The notes beneath the pieces are model-generated. The model was not told where the DNA came from and ran no database searches. It saw only the letters and a list, made by a program, of their open reading frames with translations. DNA of 64,000 nucleotides from Amyelois transitella (lineage: Eukaryota; Arthropoda; Insecta; Lepidoptera; Pyralidae), in NCBI RefSeq assembly GCF_032362555.1, contig NC_083512.1, forward strand, positions 7,242,001 to 7,306,000. Reading direction: 5' to 3'. The translations under genes and the position numbers were made by a program. Shown here piece after piece: positions 22,676 through 63,933 of this stretch. Numbering within the stretch: position 1 is the first letter of the stretch; the number at the start of each line of letters is the position of its first letter.

Positions 22676-23455
22676 ATGTTTTCAAACAAGGTTGTGATTG
22701 TTACTGGCGCCAGTTCAGGGATTGGAGCAGAAACGGCGGAGCAATTTTCTAAGTTGGAAGCACTGATGGTGTTGACTGGCAGAAACAAAGAGAACTTAAC
22801 AAATGTTGCTAAAAGATGTGAAGAAATATCTCCTAAGAAATTAACACCATTAGTTGTAATAGCTGATATGAATAAGGAGAGTGATGTTGATAATATTATA
22901 AAATTGACTCTTGAAAAATATAATAAACTTGATGTTCTTGTTAATAATGCCGGAGTATTAGAGTCTGGTACCATTGAAACTACTACATTGGCACAGTATG
23001 ACAGGGTCATGAATACTAATGTTAGAGGTCCTTACTATTTAACAATGTTGGCAACCCCTCACCTAATTTCTACTAAAGGCAACATTGTGAATGTTTCCAG
23101 TGTGACTGGTCTGCGATCATTCCCAAATGTTCTTGCGTATTGCATGTCTAAATCAGCTTTAGATCAATTCACAAGATGTGTTGCTCTGGAATTAGGAGCT
23201 AAAGGTGTTCGTGTTAATGCAGTCAATCCTGGGGTCATAACCACAGGGCTGCACATGAAAGGGGAAGGCAGTATGAATGAACAAGAATATGAAACCTTTT
23301 TAAAGAAATGTGCAGAAACTCATGCTTTGAGACGACCTGGTGATGCCAGAGAGGTAGCAAATGTTATTACATTTTTATCTAGTGATGCAGCCAGCAATAT
23401 TACTGGGGCAACAATACCAGTCGATGGAGGCCGTCATGCCATGTGTCCACGATAA
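22676..23455 (+). CDS. Classical short-chain dehydrogenase/reductase, copy 1 (259 aa)
   Basis: NAD(P)(H)-dependent oxidoreductase of the classical SDR family; the physiological substrate is not predictable. Visible motifs: glycine-rich TGASSGIG at 10-17, NNAG at 90-93, and the catalytic tetrad Asn115, Ser142, Tyr155 and Lys159 (YCMSK). NPG is at 184-186 and the C-terminal PVDGG at 248-252. Arg36 just after strand beta2 (TGRNKE) is the kind of residue that favours NADP(H). The length is normal for the family. The coding sequence is a single exon; an acceptor-like string ends five bases before the ATG, so a 5' UTR intron is likely. Lepidopteran relatives are usually labelled FabG-like 3-oxoacyl-ACP reductase; roles in ecdysteroid, retinoid or isoprenoid alcohol metabolism are alternatives. 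AATAAA occurs at 23908-23913. Neighbour 24683-25462 is its tandem paralogue. Confidence 0.93.
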   Translation: MFSNKVVIVTGASSGIGAETAEQFSKLEALMVLTGRNKENLTNVAKRCEEISPKKLTPLVVIADMNKESDVDNIIKLTLEKYNKLDVLVNNAGVLESGTIETTTLAQYDRVMNTNVRGPYYLTMLATPHLISTKGNIVNVSSVTGLRSFPNVLAYCMSKSALDQFTRCVALELGAKGVRVNAVNPGVITTGLHMKGEGSMNEQEYETFLKKCAETHALRRPGDAREVANVITFLSSDAASNITGATIPVDGGRHAMCPR

Positions 23456-24682: not shown

Positions 24683-25462
24683 ATGTTTTCGAAGAAAGTC
24701 GTAATAATTACTGGTGCCAGTTCAGGCATTGGAGCAAAAACGGCAGAGGAGTTCTCTAGATTAGAAGCTCTCTTAGTGCTGACTGGCATAAACAAAGAAC
24801 AATTTTCAAAAGTTGCTGAAAAATGTGAGAAAGTATCTCCAAAGAAATTGAAACCTTTGGTCGTAATAGCTGATATGACCAAAACGAATGAAGTCGACGA
24901 TATAATAAAAATGACCCTAGAAAAATATAATAAACTGGACGTCCTAGTTAATAACGCTGGAATATTGGAGTCTGGTACCATTGAAACTACCACATTGGCG
25001 CAATTTGATAGGATAATGAATATCAACGTTAGAGCTCCGTATTATTTGACAATGTTGGCAGCACCTCACCTTATTTCTTCGAAAGGAAACATTGTTAATG
25101 TTTCCAGTGTCTGCGGTCTTCGATCCTTCCCTAACGTCCTTGCGTATTGCATGTCGAAAACTGCAGTAGATCAGTTCACAAGATGTGTTGCTCTCGAATT
25201 AGGCGGTAAAGGTGTTCGCGTTAACGCAGTAAATCCTGGTGTTATAACTACAGGTTTGCATTTGAAAGGAGAAAGAGCTATGACTAATGAAGAATACCAA
25301 GCGTTTTTGAAGAAAAGTGCGGAAACACACGCCTTACGACGACCTGGTGTTGTCAAAGAAGTTGCTGATGTTATAACATTTTTATCTAGTGATGCCGCGA
25401 GCAATATTACCGGTGCAACCATTCCTGTTGATGGAGGACGACATGCTATGTGCCCCCGATAA
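24683..25462 (+). CDS. Classical short-chain dehydrogenase/reductase, copy 2 (259 aa)
   Basis: Tandem paralogue of the gene at 22676-23455: same length, no gaps, and about 213 of 259 residues identical by hand count (82%). TGASSGIG (10-17), NNAG (90-93), Asn115, Ser142, Tyr155, Lys159 and the C-terminus HAMCPR are all kept, so the enzyme should be active. Position 36 is Ile (TGINKE) where copy 1 has Arg, which may change the preference between NADP(H) and NAD(H). Most other differences lie at 41-50, 66-70 and 198-207, the last being the substrate-loop region of SDRs. Third-codon bases differ widely, so the duplication is not recent. Single coding exon; possible ATTAAA signal at 25630-25635. 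The 119- and 103-codon antisense frames are shadows. Confidence 0.93.
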   Translation: MFSKKVVIITGASSGIGAKTAEEFSRLEALLVLTGINKEQFSKVAEKCEKVSPKKLKPLVVIADMTKTNEVDDIIKMTLEKYNKLDVLVNNAGILESGTIETTTLAQFDRIMNINVRAPYYLTMLAAPHLISSKGNIVNVSSVCGLRSFPNVLAYCMSKTAVDQFTRCVALELGGKGVRVNAVNPGVITTGLHLKGERAMTNEEYQAFLKKSAETHALRRPGVVKEVADVITFLSSDAASNITGATIPVDGGRHAMCPR

Positions 25463-25747: not shown

Positions 25748-25916
25748 AAAGAATCCCAAGTTTATAAGTGATTTGAATATTGTGATCCAAATAGTGACAG
25801 ATTGCTAGCCCATCGCCTAAAAAAGAATCCCAAGTTTGTAAGCCTATCCCTTAGTCGCGTTTTACGACATCCACGGGCAAGAAATGAAGTGGTCCTATTC
25901 TTTTTGTTATTGGTGG
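25748..25916 (-). repeat. SINE-like family A, head half, joined to an inverted tail half
   Basis: Reads the segment from gaatcccaagtttataag through cccatcgcctaaaaaagaat to ctattctttttgttattggt in minus orientation. It stops before the gccgggaacc head and passes directly into a plus-strand tail half at 25917. Confidence 0.8.
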
Positions 25917-25994
25917 CCTATCAGTCTTTGCAGGACTGTTGGCTCTGTCTACCCCGCAAGGGATATAGACGTGATTATATGTATGTATGTATCT
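25917..25994 (+). repeat. SINE-like family A, tail half
   Basis: tatcagtctttgcaggactg, ggctctgtctaccccgcaag and atatagacgtgatta lead into (GTAT)n. Together with 25748-25916 it forms an inverted chimera of one family. Confidence 0.85.
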
Positions 25995-26072: not shown

Positions 26073-26145
26073 GCCGAAATAGCTCAGTTGGGAGAGCGTT
26101 AGACTGAAGATCTAAAGGTCCCCGGTTCAATCCCGGGTTTCGGCA
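26073..26145 (+). tRNA. tRNA-Phe, anticodon GAA
   Basis: A 73-base tRNA that folds without a misfit. The acceptor stem is GCCGAAA with TTTCGGC and discriminator A. The D arm is GCTC...GAGC with loop AGTTGGGA. The anticodon stem TTAGA/TCTAA encloses the loop CTGAAGA, with GAA at 26106-26108. The variable loop is AGGTC, and the T arm CCCGG/CCGGG carries loop TTCAATC. The internal promoter boxes A (TAGCTCAGTTGG) and B (GGTTCAATCCC) are intact. The Pol III terminator TTTT is at 26152-26155. CCA is not encoded and there is no intron, as expected for a nuclear eukaryotic tRNA-Phe. Confidence 0.97.
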
Positions 26146-26788: not shown

Positions 26789-29270
26789 TCATATAGGTAT
26801 TGCTTCCGTTCCAGTTTCGGATTCTTCTGCAGCGCATTTTACGACAGTAATTGCTTCCATTGTTATATTTGAAGAAGCAGCTATAAGTCCTTCTGTAGTA
26901 CAAGATATAATAGCTTGTAGAATATCTTCAGCTAAATTTCTAGATTGTTCTCCCTGTAAAGGTAAAATTGTTGTTTGAGTTGTAAAATTATTGCTTTTAA
27001 GATTATTGTGACGGGTTACCAGGGTGACGAAATATACTACTGCCTTATGCAAGATTTGGAAGGTACCTTTTTATCACAATTTATAATATTATAACTAGGT
27101 AGTATCGAATATAATAAACTTACGCGTTGAAGAACATCGATTTCGATCTTTTCCACTTCACAAAATAATTCTTCCCTTACTCCATGGAGACACTCTTCAT
27201 CAATATCTTCTTTTAAAACACACTCATCAAGTCTGATATCAAGCTTGTTTTGAAAGTCCTTTTCGTCAATGTAAATTTTAAGTGTTCCTTCCAAGTGAGA
27301 TAGTTGCAAAATGTTTTCAGATACACATGTAGTCACATTTCTCAATATTTCCTTTGCGATTTTGTCTATTGCTTCTTTTTCTTTCTATAAAAGAACAATT
27401 TATTTTAGTGTTACATTGTTACCACTGGAACCACTGGAATATTGTATAATAATAGGGACACAATAAGCTGTGGAAAAGCTCACAAAATATGGAAAGATTG
27501 CCGCTTAGCCAAATATACCAAGGTTCGCTTAATGAGATGCTTAGTTTTCCCTATTTACTGTCGTAATTGTTTTAGACCCGAATGACAGCTCTTTGGAATG
27601 TCTAAAGGTGCAAGGAGGAATTTAAAGTCAACGCTTTCGCGGTAGATCCCCCCAAGATGGACGAGCCTCATCAAGTCATCCACGAAGTCTTCCCTTAAGG
27701 AGTGTACCCACACGAATTGCCATGAACAGGAGGAAATGAAGCAGTATTGCAAAAGCTGCAACCAACCACACAGATAATACATTACTACGACAACTTGGTC
27801 AGGAGTGTACAATTAAGAAGACGAAATAATATTTACTTAGATATTCTACTCCAATCTCCTTACATCGTTCTCTAATTTTTGTGGATTTCTCCCTCAGTGC
27901 TTAAAGGCCAATTGCGTTAAATAAAAATTATAAGTTAGAAAATTATGGTTGAACTTTAAAACAGTTAGTTAGGTGTTGCTATTATTTAAAAAAAGGAAGA
28001 TCAAAAAACCTCACTTGTATACATTCCTTTATATTTTGTCCTGTGGTTATAGCTTTGTCAATCAAGTCGTTTACTTGATTTTGGAGCTCTTTTAAGCGTT
28101 CCTCAAAATTAGCTTGGATTTGAGCTATTTTATCTTTCATTTGTCCAATTATAGCTTGTATCTTGTCTTTTGTTTTAATAGCTATGTTCTTTATATGGTT
28201 CCAAGTACTGACAGCAGTATTTTTTATGCTTTGCCATAAATCTGAAATGCTTCTCAAATGTCTCTGATCATAGATTTCTAATATCTGTGACAATTCTTGA
28301 TTCCTATCCAAAGTATTATCATCATAGGATTGGATAATTTTTATATGATTGTTCCCATTTATTAAGTTTTTTGTTTGTGATATCTATAAGTCAAAAAATG
28401 AATTAGTTATGGTAATATCTAAAATTCTTCTTACAATTATATAATACTCTGTCACACATACCTGTGTAACATACCTATAATGCCTTAACTTATTATTACA
28501 TACATACATATGATCACGTCTATATCCCTTGCGGGGTAGACAGAGCCAACAGTCTTGAAAAGACTGAATGGCCACGTTCAGCTATTTGGCTTAATGATAG
28601 AACCGAGATTCAAATAGTGACAGGTTGCTAGCCCATCGCCTAAAAGAGGAATCCTAAGTTTATAAGCCTATCCCTTAGTCGCCTTTTACGACATCCATGG
28701 GAAAGAGATGGAGTGGTCCTATTCTTTTTTGTAATAGTGCCGGGAACCACACGGCACTGCCGGGAACCACACGGCACTTATTATTAGACATCGTTTAATA
28801 CGCTATGTTTTTGTGGTGAATACAATATCTTACATCTTACAAAGTCCAAGCACCTACAACATTTCCATGTCTTTTTACTTTCATTTCAATGAAGTTAAAT
28901 TATCTACTAATAAGAGTTGGCTGTGTGGTTCCCGGCAGTGCCGTGTGGTTCCCGGCACCAATACAAAAAAGAATAGGACCGCTCCATCTCTTTCCCATGG
29001 ATATCGTAAAAGGCGACTAAGGGATTGGCTTACAAACTTGGGATTCTTCTTTTAGGCGATGGGCTAGCAACCTGTCACTATTTGAATCTCAATTCTATCA
29101 TTAAGCCAAATAGCTGAACGTGGCCATTCAGTCTTTTTAAGACTATTGGCTCTGTCTTCCCCGCAAGGGATATAAACGTAATCCATACGACCATATGTAT
29201 GTAAGAGTTGGCTGACACAAACCTGACAATAAAGAATCACTTGGATACAAATCACTAGCACGACTTTCAT
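26789..29270 (-). CDS. Secreted helical cysteine-bearing protein, copy 2 (280 aa, four exons), family unknown
   Basis: Exons assembled by hand: 29270-29223, 28383-28015, 27384-27124 and 26953-26789 (stop TGA), all GT-AG and all phase 0. Exon 1 encodes 16 residues of signal peptide (MKVVLVICIQVILYCQ). Exon 2 is rich in amphipathic helix, with DKIQAIIGQMKDKIAQIQ and EERLKELQNQVNDLID, and ends in KECIQ. Exon 3 has cysteines at its codons 20, 55, 65 and 75. Exon 4 has cysteines at codons 18 and 41 and ends in EAIPI. No membrane segment follows the signal, so secretion is likely. A TATA box is at 29323-29316. Copy 1 lies about 0.4 kb upstream on the same strand and shares exon 1 length, most intron positions and the cysteine spacing. 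Its function is unknown to me. Intron 1 carries two inverted SINEs; intron 2 holds unclassified sequence at 27560-27830. Confidence 0.8.
27560..27830. other. Unclassified sequence in intron 2 of secreted gene 2
   Basis: A better-balanced, non-simple segment (for example gatccccccaagatggacga on the plus strand) differs from its AT-rich surroundings. An 85-codon minus-strand frame runs through it (27555-27812) but shows no motif I know. It may be a piece of an unidentified transposon. Confidence 0.3.
28497..28777 (-). repeat. SINE-like family A, full length, first arm of an inverted pair
   Basis: The tail (TACA)n is on the left. The head is on the right and its last element, gccgggaaccacacggcact, is present twice in a row. 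It lies in intron 1 of the secreted gene. Confidence 0.93.
28923..29203 (+). repeat. SINE-like family A, full length, second arm of an inverted pair
   Basis: The head starts with gtgtggttcccggcagtgcc and is doubled in the same way as in the copy at 28497-28777. The tail reads catatgtatgtaa. The two copies face head to head with 145 bp between them and also share internal variants such as aatagctgaacgtggccatt. Confidence 0.93.
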
Positions 29271-29315
29271 TTTGATGGATCTTTCAGAAGGTGTCCTGTT
29301 ATTTCGTGGCTAACC

Positions 29316-29323
29316 CTTTTATA
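29316..29323 (-). promoter_or_regulatory. TATA box of secreted gene 2
   Basis: Reads CTATAAAAGGG on the minus strand. Transcription should start roughly 30 bases downstream, near 29290, leaving a 5' UTR of only about 20 bases before the ATG at 29270. Confidence 0.7.
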
Positions 29324-29639
29324 GTTAAGAACAGATAAGCTGGAGTGATTGCATGGTAAATAGATAAAATAGCTAAGTAATTGATATTATGAAATTTTCT
29401 CTTATCAATCATTGGCCCAATTGTTAACTTCGAGTGCATTTGTCTAATATTAGCTGAAAATAAACTTGCCTTAAAATAGTTTTGAAAAAACAAAAAAGAA
29501 ACATTTTTAGACATACTTGATGAATCTTTCGTAATAATAAGCAGTCTTATTGCTTGTAGACGCAAACATGAAAAACAAAAAGGTGTTCAAATAAAAGAAG
29601 GTGTTTGGACAAGTGGGTTGTTATATGTATTATTCAAGG

Positions 29640-31760
29640 TTAGTATAACAGAGCTGTGGTGTCGACGAATGAAGAGAAAATGGATGAGGCAGAGCAGGTT
29701 CCTATTTCCATGACCAATCTTGCCGTTGCTACTCCAGCTTGAACCAGGCGTGTCCCTGCGCATACTTCAAGAGCAGCGGGTAGGGTTCCCAAAGCCAAAT
29801 TGAGGCGACCAATCTGATGAGTAAAAAAATTAAGAAAAAAGTCAGGCTGCTAGCAAATAAATGTAGTATGCTTAGTTAGTTTAGATAACATACTTTTTTT
29901 TGGTATGGACTGGATATTTACCAAAGCACAAAAAAGCACACAGCTTTCGATTGACAATGTTTAAGGTAAAGTGTAGATATACTCATATCAAGGTACTCAT
30001 GATTTTACAAAGTATTCAAAAAAGTTGAATAGTCTTACCCACATATTTACATGATCATTCTTGAGTATAAGAGCACAGAATGAATTTTACCTGAAGTCCA
30101 CTCTGAGTAACGAAAACAGCTCCTCTCATTTCAATTCTCAAAGCAACACTGCCCAAGCAGGACCCCACAGCTAGCATATTGGGCTGATTCTTGTCTATGC
30201 AATCTCTCATTTCTTCCATCGCTGAACTAGCGAAGTCTGAAGCATTGTTGGCTAGGGTCGTAAGACTGTCTAATTGTTCACCGATCTCCTTTATACGGTC
30301 GTCTGCGCAAGCAAGGCTATCTTTTAAAGTTTCATTGAAGACTACTTGTGCTTGTTGTCGTTGTTTCTGTAATTTGGAAGTGATAATGTTCGATTTCACT
30401 AAAAGTTCAAAAAATTCTTGATGCAAATTGAAAAGTTATGAGAATATTCAGTCAGGAGTAGGTTAAGACGAAAATAGGTTTGATGTTCACTGATTTTCAT
30501 TGTTTCAAATCAAACTCATAATGTAACAACAATTATTATTGCAACCCTAATGAATTTTGATTTGGTTTGGTCATTCTTTTCGCATCTGTCGAACCATTCG
30601 CGAACTCTTTTATGCCTTTTCTGCTCTCTTTTTACCTCTTAAGTTATGCTTTCGAAGGAGAATCCTGATAAGAAAGAGAGATATTACGACTTATCAACGT
30701 TCGTGACCTAGTGATTCAGCTAAAATGAATATCCAGAGTCTTATTCAGTATTACCCGATGGTATTTTACTCCCTTACATCTGTCGTCAAAATAATTTTGT
30801 TTCAAGGATAGGCAAGTATGTTTTGGATACTTACATCAATACATTCTCTGACTTGCTGTCCAGAGTTGGCGAATTTGTCATAAACTGTTTGTAAGGCACC
30901 TTCAACACGATCTCTCAGCTTCTGAATCTCCGCAACAATCTTCTCCCGGATCAACTTTGCTTGTTCAACAACGCCATCCCTGAAGTTGGAAACTGCATCG
31001 ATCGCCTCTCTTGCTGCTTTCTGAAGGTTCTCTACTAGTTGTTCGATAAGGCGCCTATAAAGTAAAATAAATTAATTTTGCTATAAAATGCTTCATTCGT
31101 ATTCATAGCGTCATAAGACGCGGGGAAATAAGTGATTTCTGTTTTATATATTCGGTAGATAACTATTTGAACTATTGCTTCTGTTTAATTATAATACGGT
31201 TGTTGAGGAAACTTTACCTAGTATTGCCAATAATATCCAGTTGCTGTTGACGTAAAGCTACACCAGTCTGTATTGGTAAAGATTCGCCAGTAGTAGGAAT
31301 CCCGAATGCTGAGCATGCCTGAAAATTATAACATTAGCTCAATGTTGCCAACACCATTATAGAGCAAAACTGTATATTTACTACCTACGAGTAACATTTA
31401 AAAATCTGTTGAAATCTGTCAAATTTTTTTTGGAAACCATAGTCGAATACCATAGCTGTAGCAACATTTCCACGTCAAAGTGAGTCTTTTTTGGTAGCCT
31501 AACTGTTTATCAAAAATACTCTAGATCTCCATTTTTATAGGATGACTAAATGAAGATATGTTAAAGGAAACGTAACACGAAGATATTTTGTAGTCACACA
31601 CAAAATATCTTCAAACCAATGAAATCCTAAACCTCCGATACTTTACTGAAGTTGTAAACCTATGCACAATGTATTAGGTACATATAAAGTATCTTGCTCT
31701 TATAAAACTTACTGAAAACACCGCGAGCAGCAGGCAGGCCACAGTAAAACAAGCACGCAT
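29640..31760 (-). CDS. Secreted helical cysteine-bearing protein, copy 1 (272 aa, five exons), family unknown
   Basis: Exons assembled by hand: 31760-31713, 31318-31218, 31054-30835, 30366-30091 and 29813-29640 (stop TAA). Borders are GT-AG; introns are phase 0 except intron 2, which is phase 2. Exon 1 encodes the hydrophobic core MRACFTVACLLLAVFS, and cleavage is likely within ACSAFG. Residues 52-124 are amphipathic helix (VENLQKAAREAIDAV, REKIVAEIQKLRDRVEGAL) ending in RECID. Exon 4 has cysteines at codons 20, 56 and 70; exon 5 has them at codons 18 and 41. These match copy 2 exactly or within a few residues. The start of exon 4 was chosen because aaattacag is the acceptor that keeps phase 0 and matches copy 2. 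I do not recognise the family. A hemolymph, cuticle or gland product is plausible but unproven. Confidence 0.8.
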
Positions 31761-31800: not shown

Positions 31801-31834
31801 ATGGTGTTCAAGAACACCATAGTGAGTATTTATA
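31801..31834 (-). promoter_or_regulatory. Promoter of secreted gene 1: TATA box and short palindrome
   Basis: TATAAATA reads on the minus strand at 31834-31827. Between it and the start codon lies the inverted repeat atggtgttc-aa-gaacaccat (31801-31820). It contains TTCnnGAA, the core spacing of heat-shock-factor sites. An initiator-like TCAG follows at 31797-31794. Confidence 0.55.
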
Positions 31835-32283: not shown

Positions 32284-32460
32284 CGATTTATACATCAAGT
32301 GCCGTACGTGTTAAGTGCCCGGCACATAAAATTTAAGAGAGTAACATAAGGTGACTCATGACAACACAAATGTTTCACTCGTTTTTCAGCTATAGAAAAT
32401 TGTTTTCAATTGCAATTTATGATATATGAACAAAAACCAAATAAAAGTACATGTGATTCA

Positions 32461-32599
32461 TCTTTTAGGCGATGGGCTAGCAACCTGTCACTATTTGAAT
32501 CGCAATTCCGTCTTCTGAAGGTGACCTTTAAGTCTTTATGAGACTGTTGGTTCCGTCTACCCCGTAAGGCTTAAAGACGTGATTATATATATGTATGTT
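32461..32599 (+). repeat. SINE-like family A, tail half
   Basis: tcttttaggcgatgggctag, caacctgtcactatttgaat and gtctaccccgtaaggc lead to a gtatgt tail. The head is missing. Confidence 0.85.
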
Positions 32600-32651
32600 A
32601 CCAAGTTCATAGTCAAGATTAATTGATTAAAGGCTAAAGGTTATGTTTATT

Positions 32652-33010
32652 ATACATACATACAAATAATCACGTTTTTATCCCTTTGGGTATCGGGTAG
32701 ACAGAGCCAACGTAAAGATTGAAAGGTTAGGTTCAGCTGAATGCTCGTTTAACATACATCCCGTACGTAGGTATGTCCAACGTACATAAAGCTGGTAGAT
32801 TGGCCTACACCATTGATGGTGCAGTTGAGACTTAAGTAAATAGGTAGGTAGTTTCATTTGTAAATGGCTGAGATTCAAATAATGACAGATTGCTAGCCCA
32901 TCGCCTTAAAGAAAAATCCCAAGTTTATTAGCTTATCCCTTAGCTGACTTTAACGACATGTAAAAGAGATGGAGTGGTACCATTTTAAAGTGCCAAGAAC
33001 CACACGGCAA
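32652..33010 (-). repeat. SINE-like family A with about 120 bp of extra sequence
   Basis: It has the tail atacatacatacaaataatc, then gggtagacagagccaac; the family match breaks at about 32748 and resumes at about 32870 with gagattcaaataatgacaga. It ends in the head gccaagaaccacacggc. Confidence 0.8.
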
Positions 33011-62611: not shown

Positions 62612-63933
62612 TACTCTGTCAAGAAAGTAGCAGGAAAAGATCAATAATACACAAACTGTTTGTTATTCATTCAAATTTATTTTATCACCTTCAAAATATG
62701 CTCCTTTAGAAACGATACACTTACGCCAACGAATAATCCAATCATCAAAACATTTTTTAAACGCTGTTTCCGGAATTGAGGTCAGTTCTCGCCGCGAATT
62801 CTCTTTTATGTCTTCTACCGATTGAAAACGGGTGCCACGAAGTGGTAATTTGAGTTTAGGAAAAAGAAAAAAGTCGGCTGGAGCCATATCTGGTGAATAT
62901 GGTGGTTGCTCGATGGTATTTGTTGAGTGTTTGGTTAAAAATTCGTTCACAATGATGGCCTTGTGCGAAGGTGCATTATCATGGTGCAAAATCCAAGAAT
63001 TTTCTTTTCACAAATCTGGCCATTTTCGTCGGATTTGCTCTCTTAAACGCCGCATAACACTCAAATAATATTCCTTATTTACCGTTTGACCTTCCGGCAA
63101 GAATTCCGAGTGCACAACACCGCGATAGTCAAAGAAAACAGTCAACATGACTTTGACTTTTGAACGACTTTGGCGTGGTTTTTTCGGTTTCGGTTCAGTT
63201 GGAAGGCGCCACTCCGAAGCTTGTTGACTAGTTTGCATGTCAAACTCGTAAACCCACGTCTCGTCACCAGTAACAATGCGTTTCATGAATGTTGGGTCGG
63301 AATTGACTCGTTCTAGCATGTCCTCAGCGACTATCATGCGATTGAGTTTTTGAAAAAAAATCAGGTCTTTTGGGACTAGCCGAGCGGCAACATGTTTCAT
63401 ACCCAAATTATTAGTTAAAATGGTACGGATCGACTCGTGAGATACAGAAAGTTCGGTGGCTATCTCTCTCAAAGTTGAATGAGGATTTTCAGTCACTATT
63501 TCCTTCACTTTTGCGATGTTATCTTCAGTTGCAGACGTTGATGGCCTACCAGAGCGAGGCAAATCTTCCATCACATCTCGACCGCTTTTGAACGCTTTGT
63601 ACCACTCATAAGCACGAGTTTTTGAGAAAGTCGATTCACCGTAAGCCTTCTGTAACATTTTCAGTGACTCCGAACACGATATTCCATTGGCAATGCAAAA
63701 TTTAAGACAAACTCTTTGTTCGATGTTTTTATCCATTATGAAATTAGCAATACACACTAGATGTGATATAACTAAAAATAGCACTGTATTTAATGTAAAC
63801 AACAGATGCAACTCAAACTCCGCGCCAAAATGGAAAACAGTTGTGCCAATCTAACAACAACAAAAAAAACAAAAATTTGAATTTGGAACCATAAATAAAT
63901 AATCCATTCCCGATACTTTTCTGACTGAATGTA
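62612..63933 (-). mobile_element. mariner (Tc1/mariner, DD34D) transposon, nearly whole
   Basis: The element body is 62614-63931 (about 1.32 kb), flanked by TA at 62612-62613 and 63932-63933, the expected mariner target. The ends are imperfect inverted repeats: gtcaagaaagtagcagga from 62619 and, read inward on the other strand, gtcagaaaagtatcggga. A single transposase frame fills most of it. Except for one stop codon the coding frame is intact, so the copy is fairly young. Confidence 0.9.
62663..63736 (-). pseudogene. mariner transposase with one in-frame nonsense codon
   Basis: The start was placed at the ATG 63736-63734 (MDKNIEQRVCLKF), not at the upstream ATG of the longer frame, because family members begin here. 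The frame has 357 positions plus a stop. It contains the N-terminal helix-turn-helix region, PRSGRPST at 60-67, the first catalytic Asp158 (TGDETWVYEFD), Asp253 (HHDNAPSH) and Asp288 (APADFFLF); the last two have 34 residues between them (DD34D). Codon 243 (63010-63008) is TGA where relatives have Trp, and reading continues in the same frame to 62663. There is no frameshift. The stop removes both later catalytic residues, so the product would be inactive; the element could only be moved in trans. Confidence 0.93.

What the first reader, a model, noticed from the sequence alone, without database searches (positions are those of the whole stretch)
26789..31760. Tandem pair of undescribed secreted, helical, cysteine-patterned proteins
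Neither gene is visible as one open frame, but both assemble cleanly from GT-AG exons into 272 and 280 residues. Sequence identity is very low, yet the architecture agrees closely. Both have a 16-codon signal exon, an exon ending in ECI(D/Q), the next exon with Cys at codon 20, and a last exon with Cys at codons 18 and 41. Both are TATA-driven with short 5' UTRs. Such fast-diverging pairs with a fixed cysteine frame suggest a lepidopteran secreted family under selection for change (hemolymph, cuticle, gland or immune roles are open).
Basis: partly seen in the sequence, partly recalled or inferred. Interest (0 to 1): 0.75.

Follow-up and report, generated by a model that had tools for sequence, protein, structure and literature searches.

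The report
Tandem disulfide-stapled secreted moth proteins
Two neighbouring moth genes, distant duplicates of each other, encode secreted proteins predicted to fold into long helices clamped by three nested disulfide bridges; one has relatives in several families of butterflies and moths, and none of the relatives found has a named function.

Summary
The gene models hold. Gene B (29640-31760, minus, 5 exons, 272 aa) has 10 single-protein lepidopteran homologues plus the first half of a fused Plodia record. Gene A (26789-29270, minus, 4 exons, 280 aa) has only a Galleria protein and that record's second half. A and B are distant paralogues: profile scores beat all shuffles, all three A introns match B introns, and six cysteines are present in 15 of 15 sequences with spacing 22/35-36/10-16/40/22. 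The spacing is mirror-symmetric; with an AlphaFold2 model of a B relative it predicts nested bridges C1-C6, C2-C5, C3-C4. Eight of 10 B homologues carry an RxKR/RxRR or QRR site before helix 1; window B lacks it. No curated family passes its cut-off. Apolipoprotein hits of B are matched by pattern-preserving shuffles, though four relatives carry precomputed apolipoprotein labels. 'Selection for change' is not shown: helix 3 is B's most conserved part, although A evolves about twice as fast. Function is inferred with low confidence: an extracellular amphipathic lipid-surface or ligand-carrying protein.

The parts
31713..31760 (-). gene B exon 1, signal peptide (16 codons)
   Evidence: GTAAGT donor
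31218..31318 (-). gene B exon 2 (stretch between leader and helix 1, start of helix 1); ends in a phase-2 intron that A lacks
30835..31054 (-). gene B exon 3, amphipathic helix 1 and C1; ends ECID
30091..30366 (-). gene B exon 4, helix 2 with C2 and C3, then C4 and the start of helix 3
29640..29813 (-). gene B exon 5, rest of helix 3 with C5 (codon 18) and C6 (codon 40), stop TAA
31827..31834 (-). TATA box of gene B (TATAAATA), 74 nt before the ATG
29223..29270 (-). gene A exon 1, signal peptide (16 codons); weak donor GTTTGT
   Evidence: by analogy with B and Galleria P0010; skipped in the Plodia model
28015..28383 (-). gene A exon 2, linker, amphipathic helix 1 and C1; ends ECIQ
27124..27384 (-). 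gene A exon 3, helix 2 with C2 and C3, then C4; also an extra Cys (residue 214) absent from Plodia and Galleria
26789..26953 (-). gene A exon 4, helix 3 with C5 (codon 18) and C6 (codon 40), stop TGA
29316..29323 (-). TATA box of gene A (TATAAAAG), 53 nt before the ATG

Best explanation
A and B are tandem paralogues of one lepidopteran family of secreted all-helical proteins. SHOWN: homology, shared introns, six invariant cysteines, hydrophobic leaders. PREDICTED: an N-terminal amphipathic helix without cysteines packs beside an antiparallel hairpin of two long helices held by three nested disulfides, C1-C6, C2-C5 and C3-C4. INFERRED from the anatomy: the protein circulates or is secreted into a lumen; in most relatives found a short N-terminal propeptide is cut off at an RxKR/RxRR-type site; the stapled hairpin is a rigid scaffold, and the free amphipathic helix swings away to bind lipid surfaces or hydrophobic ligands, working like an exchangeable apolipoprotein without having been shown to be one. 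B is the widespread, more constrained member; A is a faster-evolving copy found so far only in three pyralid moths (the window's, Plodia, Galleria). My confidence by part: family and pair 0.95, secreted 0.9, nested disulfides 0.75, lipid or hydrophobic-ligand binding 0.3.
Confidence: 0.4

Rival explanations
1. Membrane-active effector: the hydrophobic, small-residue-rich helix 3 inserts into membranes after the N-terminal propeptide is cut, so that the family serves defence in hemolymph or gut or acts in saliva.
For: Helix 3 is the most hydrophobic of the three in all four proteins measured (mean H 0.25 in B, 0.33 in P0012, 0.09 in A, 0.13 in P0010) and the most conserved in B; RxKR/RxRR or QRR site in 8 of the 10 single-protein B homologues; faster evolution of A.
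Against: A helix 3 stapled by disulfides is not free to insert; window B and Plodia B lack the site; a conserved hydrophobic helix is equally expected in the core of a bundle. Between window A and Plodia A helix 1 is better kept than helix 3 (72% against 65%). ClyA appears among fold matches only at rmsd 9.8.
Confidence: 0.15
2. Structural or packing protein of a gland secretion (silk, saliva, seminal fluid or cuticle): long stapled helices form bundles or fibres without a ligand.
For: Long uninterrupted helices; coiled-coil-like background hits in Pfam; own TATA boxes, which strongly expressed secretion genes often have (recalled).
Against: No repetitive or low-complexity sequence seen in the proteins; no tissue data. 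No paper held in the library names the five loci or two peptides searched for (0 papers each); broader searches were seen as listings only.
Confidence: 0.25
3. One gene, not two: B and A are expressed as a single two-module protein, as in the Plodia record P0011, where A's signal exon is skipped and B's last exon joins A exon 2.
For: P0011 is 536 aa and aligns as B followed by A, the joint falling on A's exon 2 start.
Against: In the window B ends in an in-frame TAA with no GT donor at the corresponding place (by eye); A has its own TATA box and signal exon; Galleria P0010 stands alone with its own leader. Merged gene predictions are a known artefact (recalled).
Confidence: 0.08

Closest known systems
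Uncharacterised lepidopteran B homologues (for example Ostrinia LOC135074219, Maniola LOC123867590, Vanessa LOC124532363, Helicoverpa LOC124631834)
   Same: Gene B belongs with them: 42-56% identity, same six cysteines and alignable along the whole helical part.
   Different: Window B and Plodia B lack the R-X-K/R-R site that six of the ten others have.
Galleria mellonella LOC113510504 and the second half of Plodia LOC128671414
   Same: Closest relatives of A: 37.8% and 59.3% identity.
   Different: Window A has one extra cysteine (214); the Plodia model is fused to B and lacks the signal exon.
Exchangeable apolipoproteins: apolipophorin-III (PF07464) and apolipoprotein A1/A4/E (PF01442)
   Same: All-helical with amphipathic helices; profile hits at E up to 0.1 in 9 and 10 of 10 members; precomputed labels on four relatives.
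   Different: A and B are below the curated cut-offs, and B's hit is matched by shuffles; a six-cysteine stapled hairpin is not a feature of apoLp-III (recalled).
BAR-type and other long three-helix bundles
   Different: Those are cytosolic dimers without cysteine staples (recalled); Pfam BAR gives B 13.0 bits against a cut-off of 28.5.

Membership tests
Lepidopteran six-cysteine helical secreted family (defined here from B and its homologues) | six cysteines spaced 22/35-36/10-16/40/22 | tested here: met
   15 of 15 rows, A and B included; cysteines before residue 41 left out of the count; A has one extra
Lepidopteran six-cysteine helical secreted family (defined here from B and its homologues) | phase-0 introns after the signal exon, two residues after C1, and 17 residues before C5 | tested here: met
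   3 of 3 introns of A match B; gene structures of other species were not seen
Lepidopteran six-cysteine helical secreted family (defined here from B and its homologues) | three nested disulfides | not testable with these tools
   predicted from spacing and one AF2 model; coordinates not inspected
Apolipoprotein A1/A4/E (PF01442) | Pfam gathering score of 90 bits | tested here: not met
   B 24.8, A 15.6 bits; shuffles of B reach 25.1. Against this: four relatives carry precomputed PF01442 labels and the best of 10 members reaches E 1.5e-7
Apolipophorin-III (PF07464) | Pfam gathering score of 36.3 bits | tested here: not met
   19.2 bits for both A and B; the Plodia record P0011 carries a precomputed label
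Apolipophorin-III (PF07464) | reversible lipid-surface binding | not testable with these tools
   needs protein
DUF1397 (PF07165; recalled as including the 27 kDa hemolymph protein) | Pfam gathering score of 25.7 bits | tested here: not met
   B 16.0 bits, E 0.0078; not listed for A at E up to 1
DUF725 (PF05267) | Pfam family match | tested here: inconclusive
   3 of 10 members at E up to 0.1, best 0.041, bits not shown; the genome search with this family did not complete
BAR domain (PF03114) | Pfam gathering score of 28.5 bits | tested here: not met
   B 13.0 bits; the fold resemblance is to a common arrangement

The most novel reading that the evidence does not exclude
A lepidopteran class of secreted proteins built as a proteolytically primed, disulfide-stapled helical clamp: a hydrophobic helix is locked between an amphipathic helix and its partner, a convertase-type cut frees the N-terminal helix, and the protein then binds lipid or membranes. 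In pyralid moths a tandem copy has diverged fast, and in at least one (Plodia) both modules may be made as one two-clamp protein.
Probability: 0.12. Interest if true: 0.6.

Novelty: new variant of a known kind. Interest (0 to 1): 0.42.

Why it matters
A secreted protein family present in several families of butterflies and moths, passing no Pfam cut-off in the window's two members and with no function found in the searches made here, is a gap in lepidopteran physiology. The cysteine frame gives a clear test (three nested disulfides) and a rule for recognising members that pairwise searches miss, such as A, which is 21.3% identical to B.

Tried and rejected
Apolipoprotein kinship: not supported for A and B after the shuffle control (8 of the 10 shuffles printed were scanned, five of B and three of A), but not excluded for the family, since the best member (E 1.5e-7) beats the best shuffle (E 1.6e-5) and four relatives carry precomputed labels. 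Solved structures by sequence: a designed helical bundle (E 0.0015), then apolipoproteins among others (E from 0.003), read as amphipathic-helix background. NCBIfam: eight bacterial families, one or two of 10 members each, best E 2.5e-5, not plausible for a moth protein. Viral fold library: nothing at E<=0.001. No fold search was made with the A-side model because its confidence is too low. Tree: A stands on a very long branch (about 4.7 changes per column between the groups), 6 of 12 inner branches are well supported, and two A rows have odd letter make-up; a pyralid-only origin of A is neither shown nor rejected (AU p 0.24 with Pyralidae held together, 0.088 with Crambidae added). Other copies in the window: no frame of 25 aa or more outside A and B passes HMMER's inclusion threshold. 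Other copies in the genome: B's query finds only B's own four longer exons; it missed A too, so distant copies are not excluded. Papers: five locus names (0 papers), two conserved peptides, DUF725, '27 kDa hemolymph' (9 papers, listing only), silk proteomics terms (listing only), general terms (187 with 20 listed; listings only apart from the next). The Helicoverpa saliva paper PMC3203145 (passages; one section) reports an abundant saliva protein of unknown function, HaPUF-1; a search for that name gave this paper alone. An exon-like stretch in A's intron 2 (about 27822-27900) was considered by eye and dropped: the frame continuing from exon 2 meets a stop.
Full report
OBSERVATION. On the minus strand of the window (placed at C8:7242001-7306000 of a 327-Mb, 33-contig genome) two genes follow each other. 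Gene B: exons 31760-31713, 31318-31218, 31054-30835, 30366-30091, 29813-29640, 272 aa. Gene A: exons 29270-29223, 28383-28015, 27384-27124, 26953-26789, 280 aa. All junctions are GT-AG. TATAAA lies 74 nt before B's ATG and 53 nt before A's; 0.17 such words are expected per 100 nt of one strand.

ARE THE GENES REAL? B finds nine lepidopteran proteins, all named uncharacterized, at E 5e-79 to 4e-61: Aphomia sociella, Epargyreus clarus, Ostrinia nubilalis, Maniola jurtina, Maniola (Aphantopus) hyperantus, Pararge aegeria, Vanessa atalanta, Vanessa cardui and Helicoverpa zea. The combined-alignment search (only the 7999 candidates sharing most words were scored) adds Diatraea saccharalis and a Plodia record. 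A finds one protein, from Galleria, at 37%, and the second half of the Plodia record. That record (536 aa) reads as B (74.2% over 271 aa) followed directly by A without its signal exon (59.3% over 263 aa). The alignments run through the splice junctions. The host is therefore a moth close to Plodia (inference from identities). The database search needs shared 5-residue words, so absence of A elsewhere is not shown.

ARE A AND B RELATED? Identity is 21.3% over 258 aligned residues. The B-family profile scores the three A-family sequences at 25.0-26.6 bits; 300 local shuffles of each reach at most 8.6, reversed sequences 5.4-13.0. The A-family profile scores the four B-family members looked at (of twelve) at 18.0-37.2 bits; shuffles reach at most 7.0, reversed sequences 5.7-10.9. 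The reversed scores show some background from helix pattern. Profile-profile comparison gives E 5.4e-5 over 80 columns (probability 66.6, moderate alone). All three A introns match B introns in place and phase: after codon 16, two residues after C1, and 17 residues before C5; B has one more, in phase 2. In the combined alignments six cysteines are invariant. Counted over 15 sequences (11 database proteins, the two Plodia halves, A and B; cysteines before residue 41 left out), all 15 have them, spaced 22, 36 (12 rows) or 35 (3 A-family rows), 10-16, 40, 22; A has one extra at 214.

STRUCTURE. AlphaFold2 of the Diatraea relative (11-row alignment) gives three long helices, 26-100, 106-172 and 177-255, pLDDT 74.1, pTM 0.54; two of the five models are near 60. 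C1, C2, C3 lie on helix 2 and C4, C5, C6 on helix 3. In an antiparallel hairpin facing residues have a constant index sum. In the five rows computed C1+C6 equals C2+C5 and C3+C4 is 4 (B family) or 5 (A family) less, at the turn. Placing three cysteines at random in each helix of the model gave sums within 4 of each other and centred on the hairpin in 1.0% of trials; that rule was set after seeing the data, and the A family would miss it by one. Nested bridges C1-C6, C2-C5, C3-C4 are therefore predicted; no bond was measured and coordinates were not inspected. The Galleria A model is poor (pLDDT 54.3). Helix 1 is amphipathic (z 3.1-4.8 above shuffles in four proteins). Helix 3 is the most hydrophobic of the three in all four (mean H 0.25 and 0.33 in the B family, 0.09 and 0.13 in the A family) and little or not amphipathic (z 0.0-1.9). 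Fold matches are long helix bundles of many kinds, with BAR domains, designed bundles and apoA-IV among them, and give no clear functional signal.

PROCESSING. Just before helix 1, six of ten single-protein B homologues have R-X-K/R-R (P0001, P0002, P0004, P0005, P0006, P0012) and two have QRR (both Vanessa); Ostrinia and Helicoverpa have none, and window and Plodia B read RQQQ there. This looks like a convertase site (furin rule recalled) that some lineages lack. A and Plodia A have only R-X-L-R near the same place, Galleria none.

EVOLUTION. In the tree the well-supported B groups join close species (two Vanessa; Maniola with Pararge; window with Plodia), deeper forks are open, and A stands far off. 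Window-Plodia distance is 0.67 for A and 0.31 for B; to a galleriine relative 1.74 (Galleria A) and 0.97 (Aphomia B, another genus). So A changes about twice as fast. In B, helix 3 is 47-73% identical to nine relatives, against 30-52% for helix 2 and 45-58% for helix 1. In A the picture is mixed: helix 3 is best kept against Galleria (43%, helix 1 39%), helix 1 against Plodia (72%, helix 3 65%). Window and Galleria A share 15 identical residues in a row in helix 3; Plodia A differs at three of them. This is constraint with a loose N-terminus, not evidence of positive selection, which could not be tested without coding DNA of relatives.

KNOWN FAMILIES. For A and B Pfam gives only hits below the curated cut-offs; apolipoprotein A1/A4/E and apoLp-III are the commonest over ten members. 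A control that keeps the hydrophobic/polar/charge pattern but permutes residues within classes scored 19.7-25.1 bits on PF01442 in four of five shuffles of B, against 24.8 for B itself; for A one of three shuffles scored 13.7 against 15.6. For B the resemblance is thus one of helix pattern. Against that, the best of ten members reaches E 1.5e-7 and four relatives carry precomputed apolipoprotein labels. A similar way of working is therefore kept as first guess at low confidence, and true kinship is left open at lower odds.

PLODIA FUSION. The Plodia record joins B's last residues to A's exon 2. In the window B ends in an in-frame TAA with no GT donor at that point, and A has its own TATA box and leader. 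Either the Plodia model merges two genes or that species makes a fused product; RNA-seq would decide.

VERDICT. Anatomy is strong; mechanism is inference.

Noticed in passing
28488-29213: Two copies of a mobile element in opposite orientation (264-nt arms, 94% complementary) fill about two thirds of A's intron 1. Each is flanked by an 11-nt direct repeat (GCCAACTCTTA; TAATAATAAGT), so they look like two separate insertions; similar sequence is seen by eye near 25800-25990 and 32460-32720.
   Followed up: partly
31801-31820: Palindrome (9-nt arms, 2-nt spacer, ATGGTGTTC/GAACACCAT) between B's TATA box and ATG, about where transcription should start (read by eye).
   Followed up: no
22676-23455 and 24683-25462: Tandem pair of short-chain dehydrogenase genes open without introns on the plus strand, 259 aa each (Pfam adh_short_C2, E 7e-59 and 5e-59).
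   Followed up: partly
62663-63811: Mariner/Mos1-type transposase on the minus strand: the longer frame (63008-63811) matches Transposase_1 and HTH_48; the second frame (62663-62989) matches no Pfam family at 1e-5 and is linked only by eye.
   Followed up: partly
26073-26145: tRNA-Phe (GAA) on the plus strand, beyond the 3' end of gene A.
   Followed up: no
29270-29640: The Plodia gene record LOC128671414 fuses the relatives of B and A into one 536-aa protein; the window has a separate stop, TATA box and signal exon in this 370-nt gap and its edges.
   Followed up: partly
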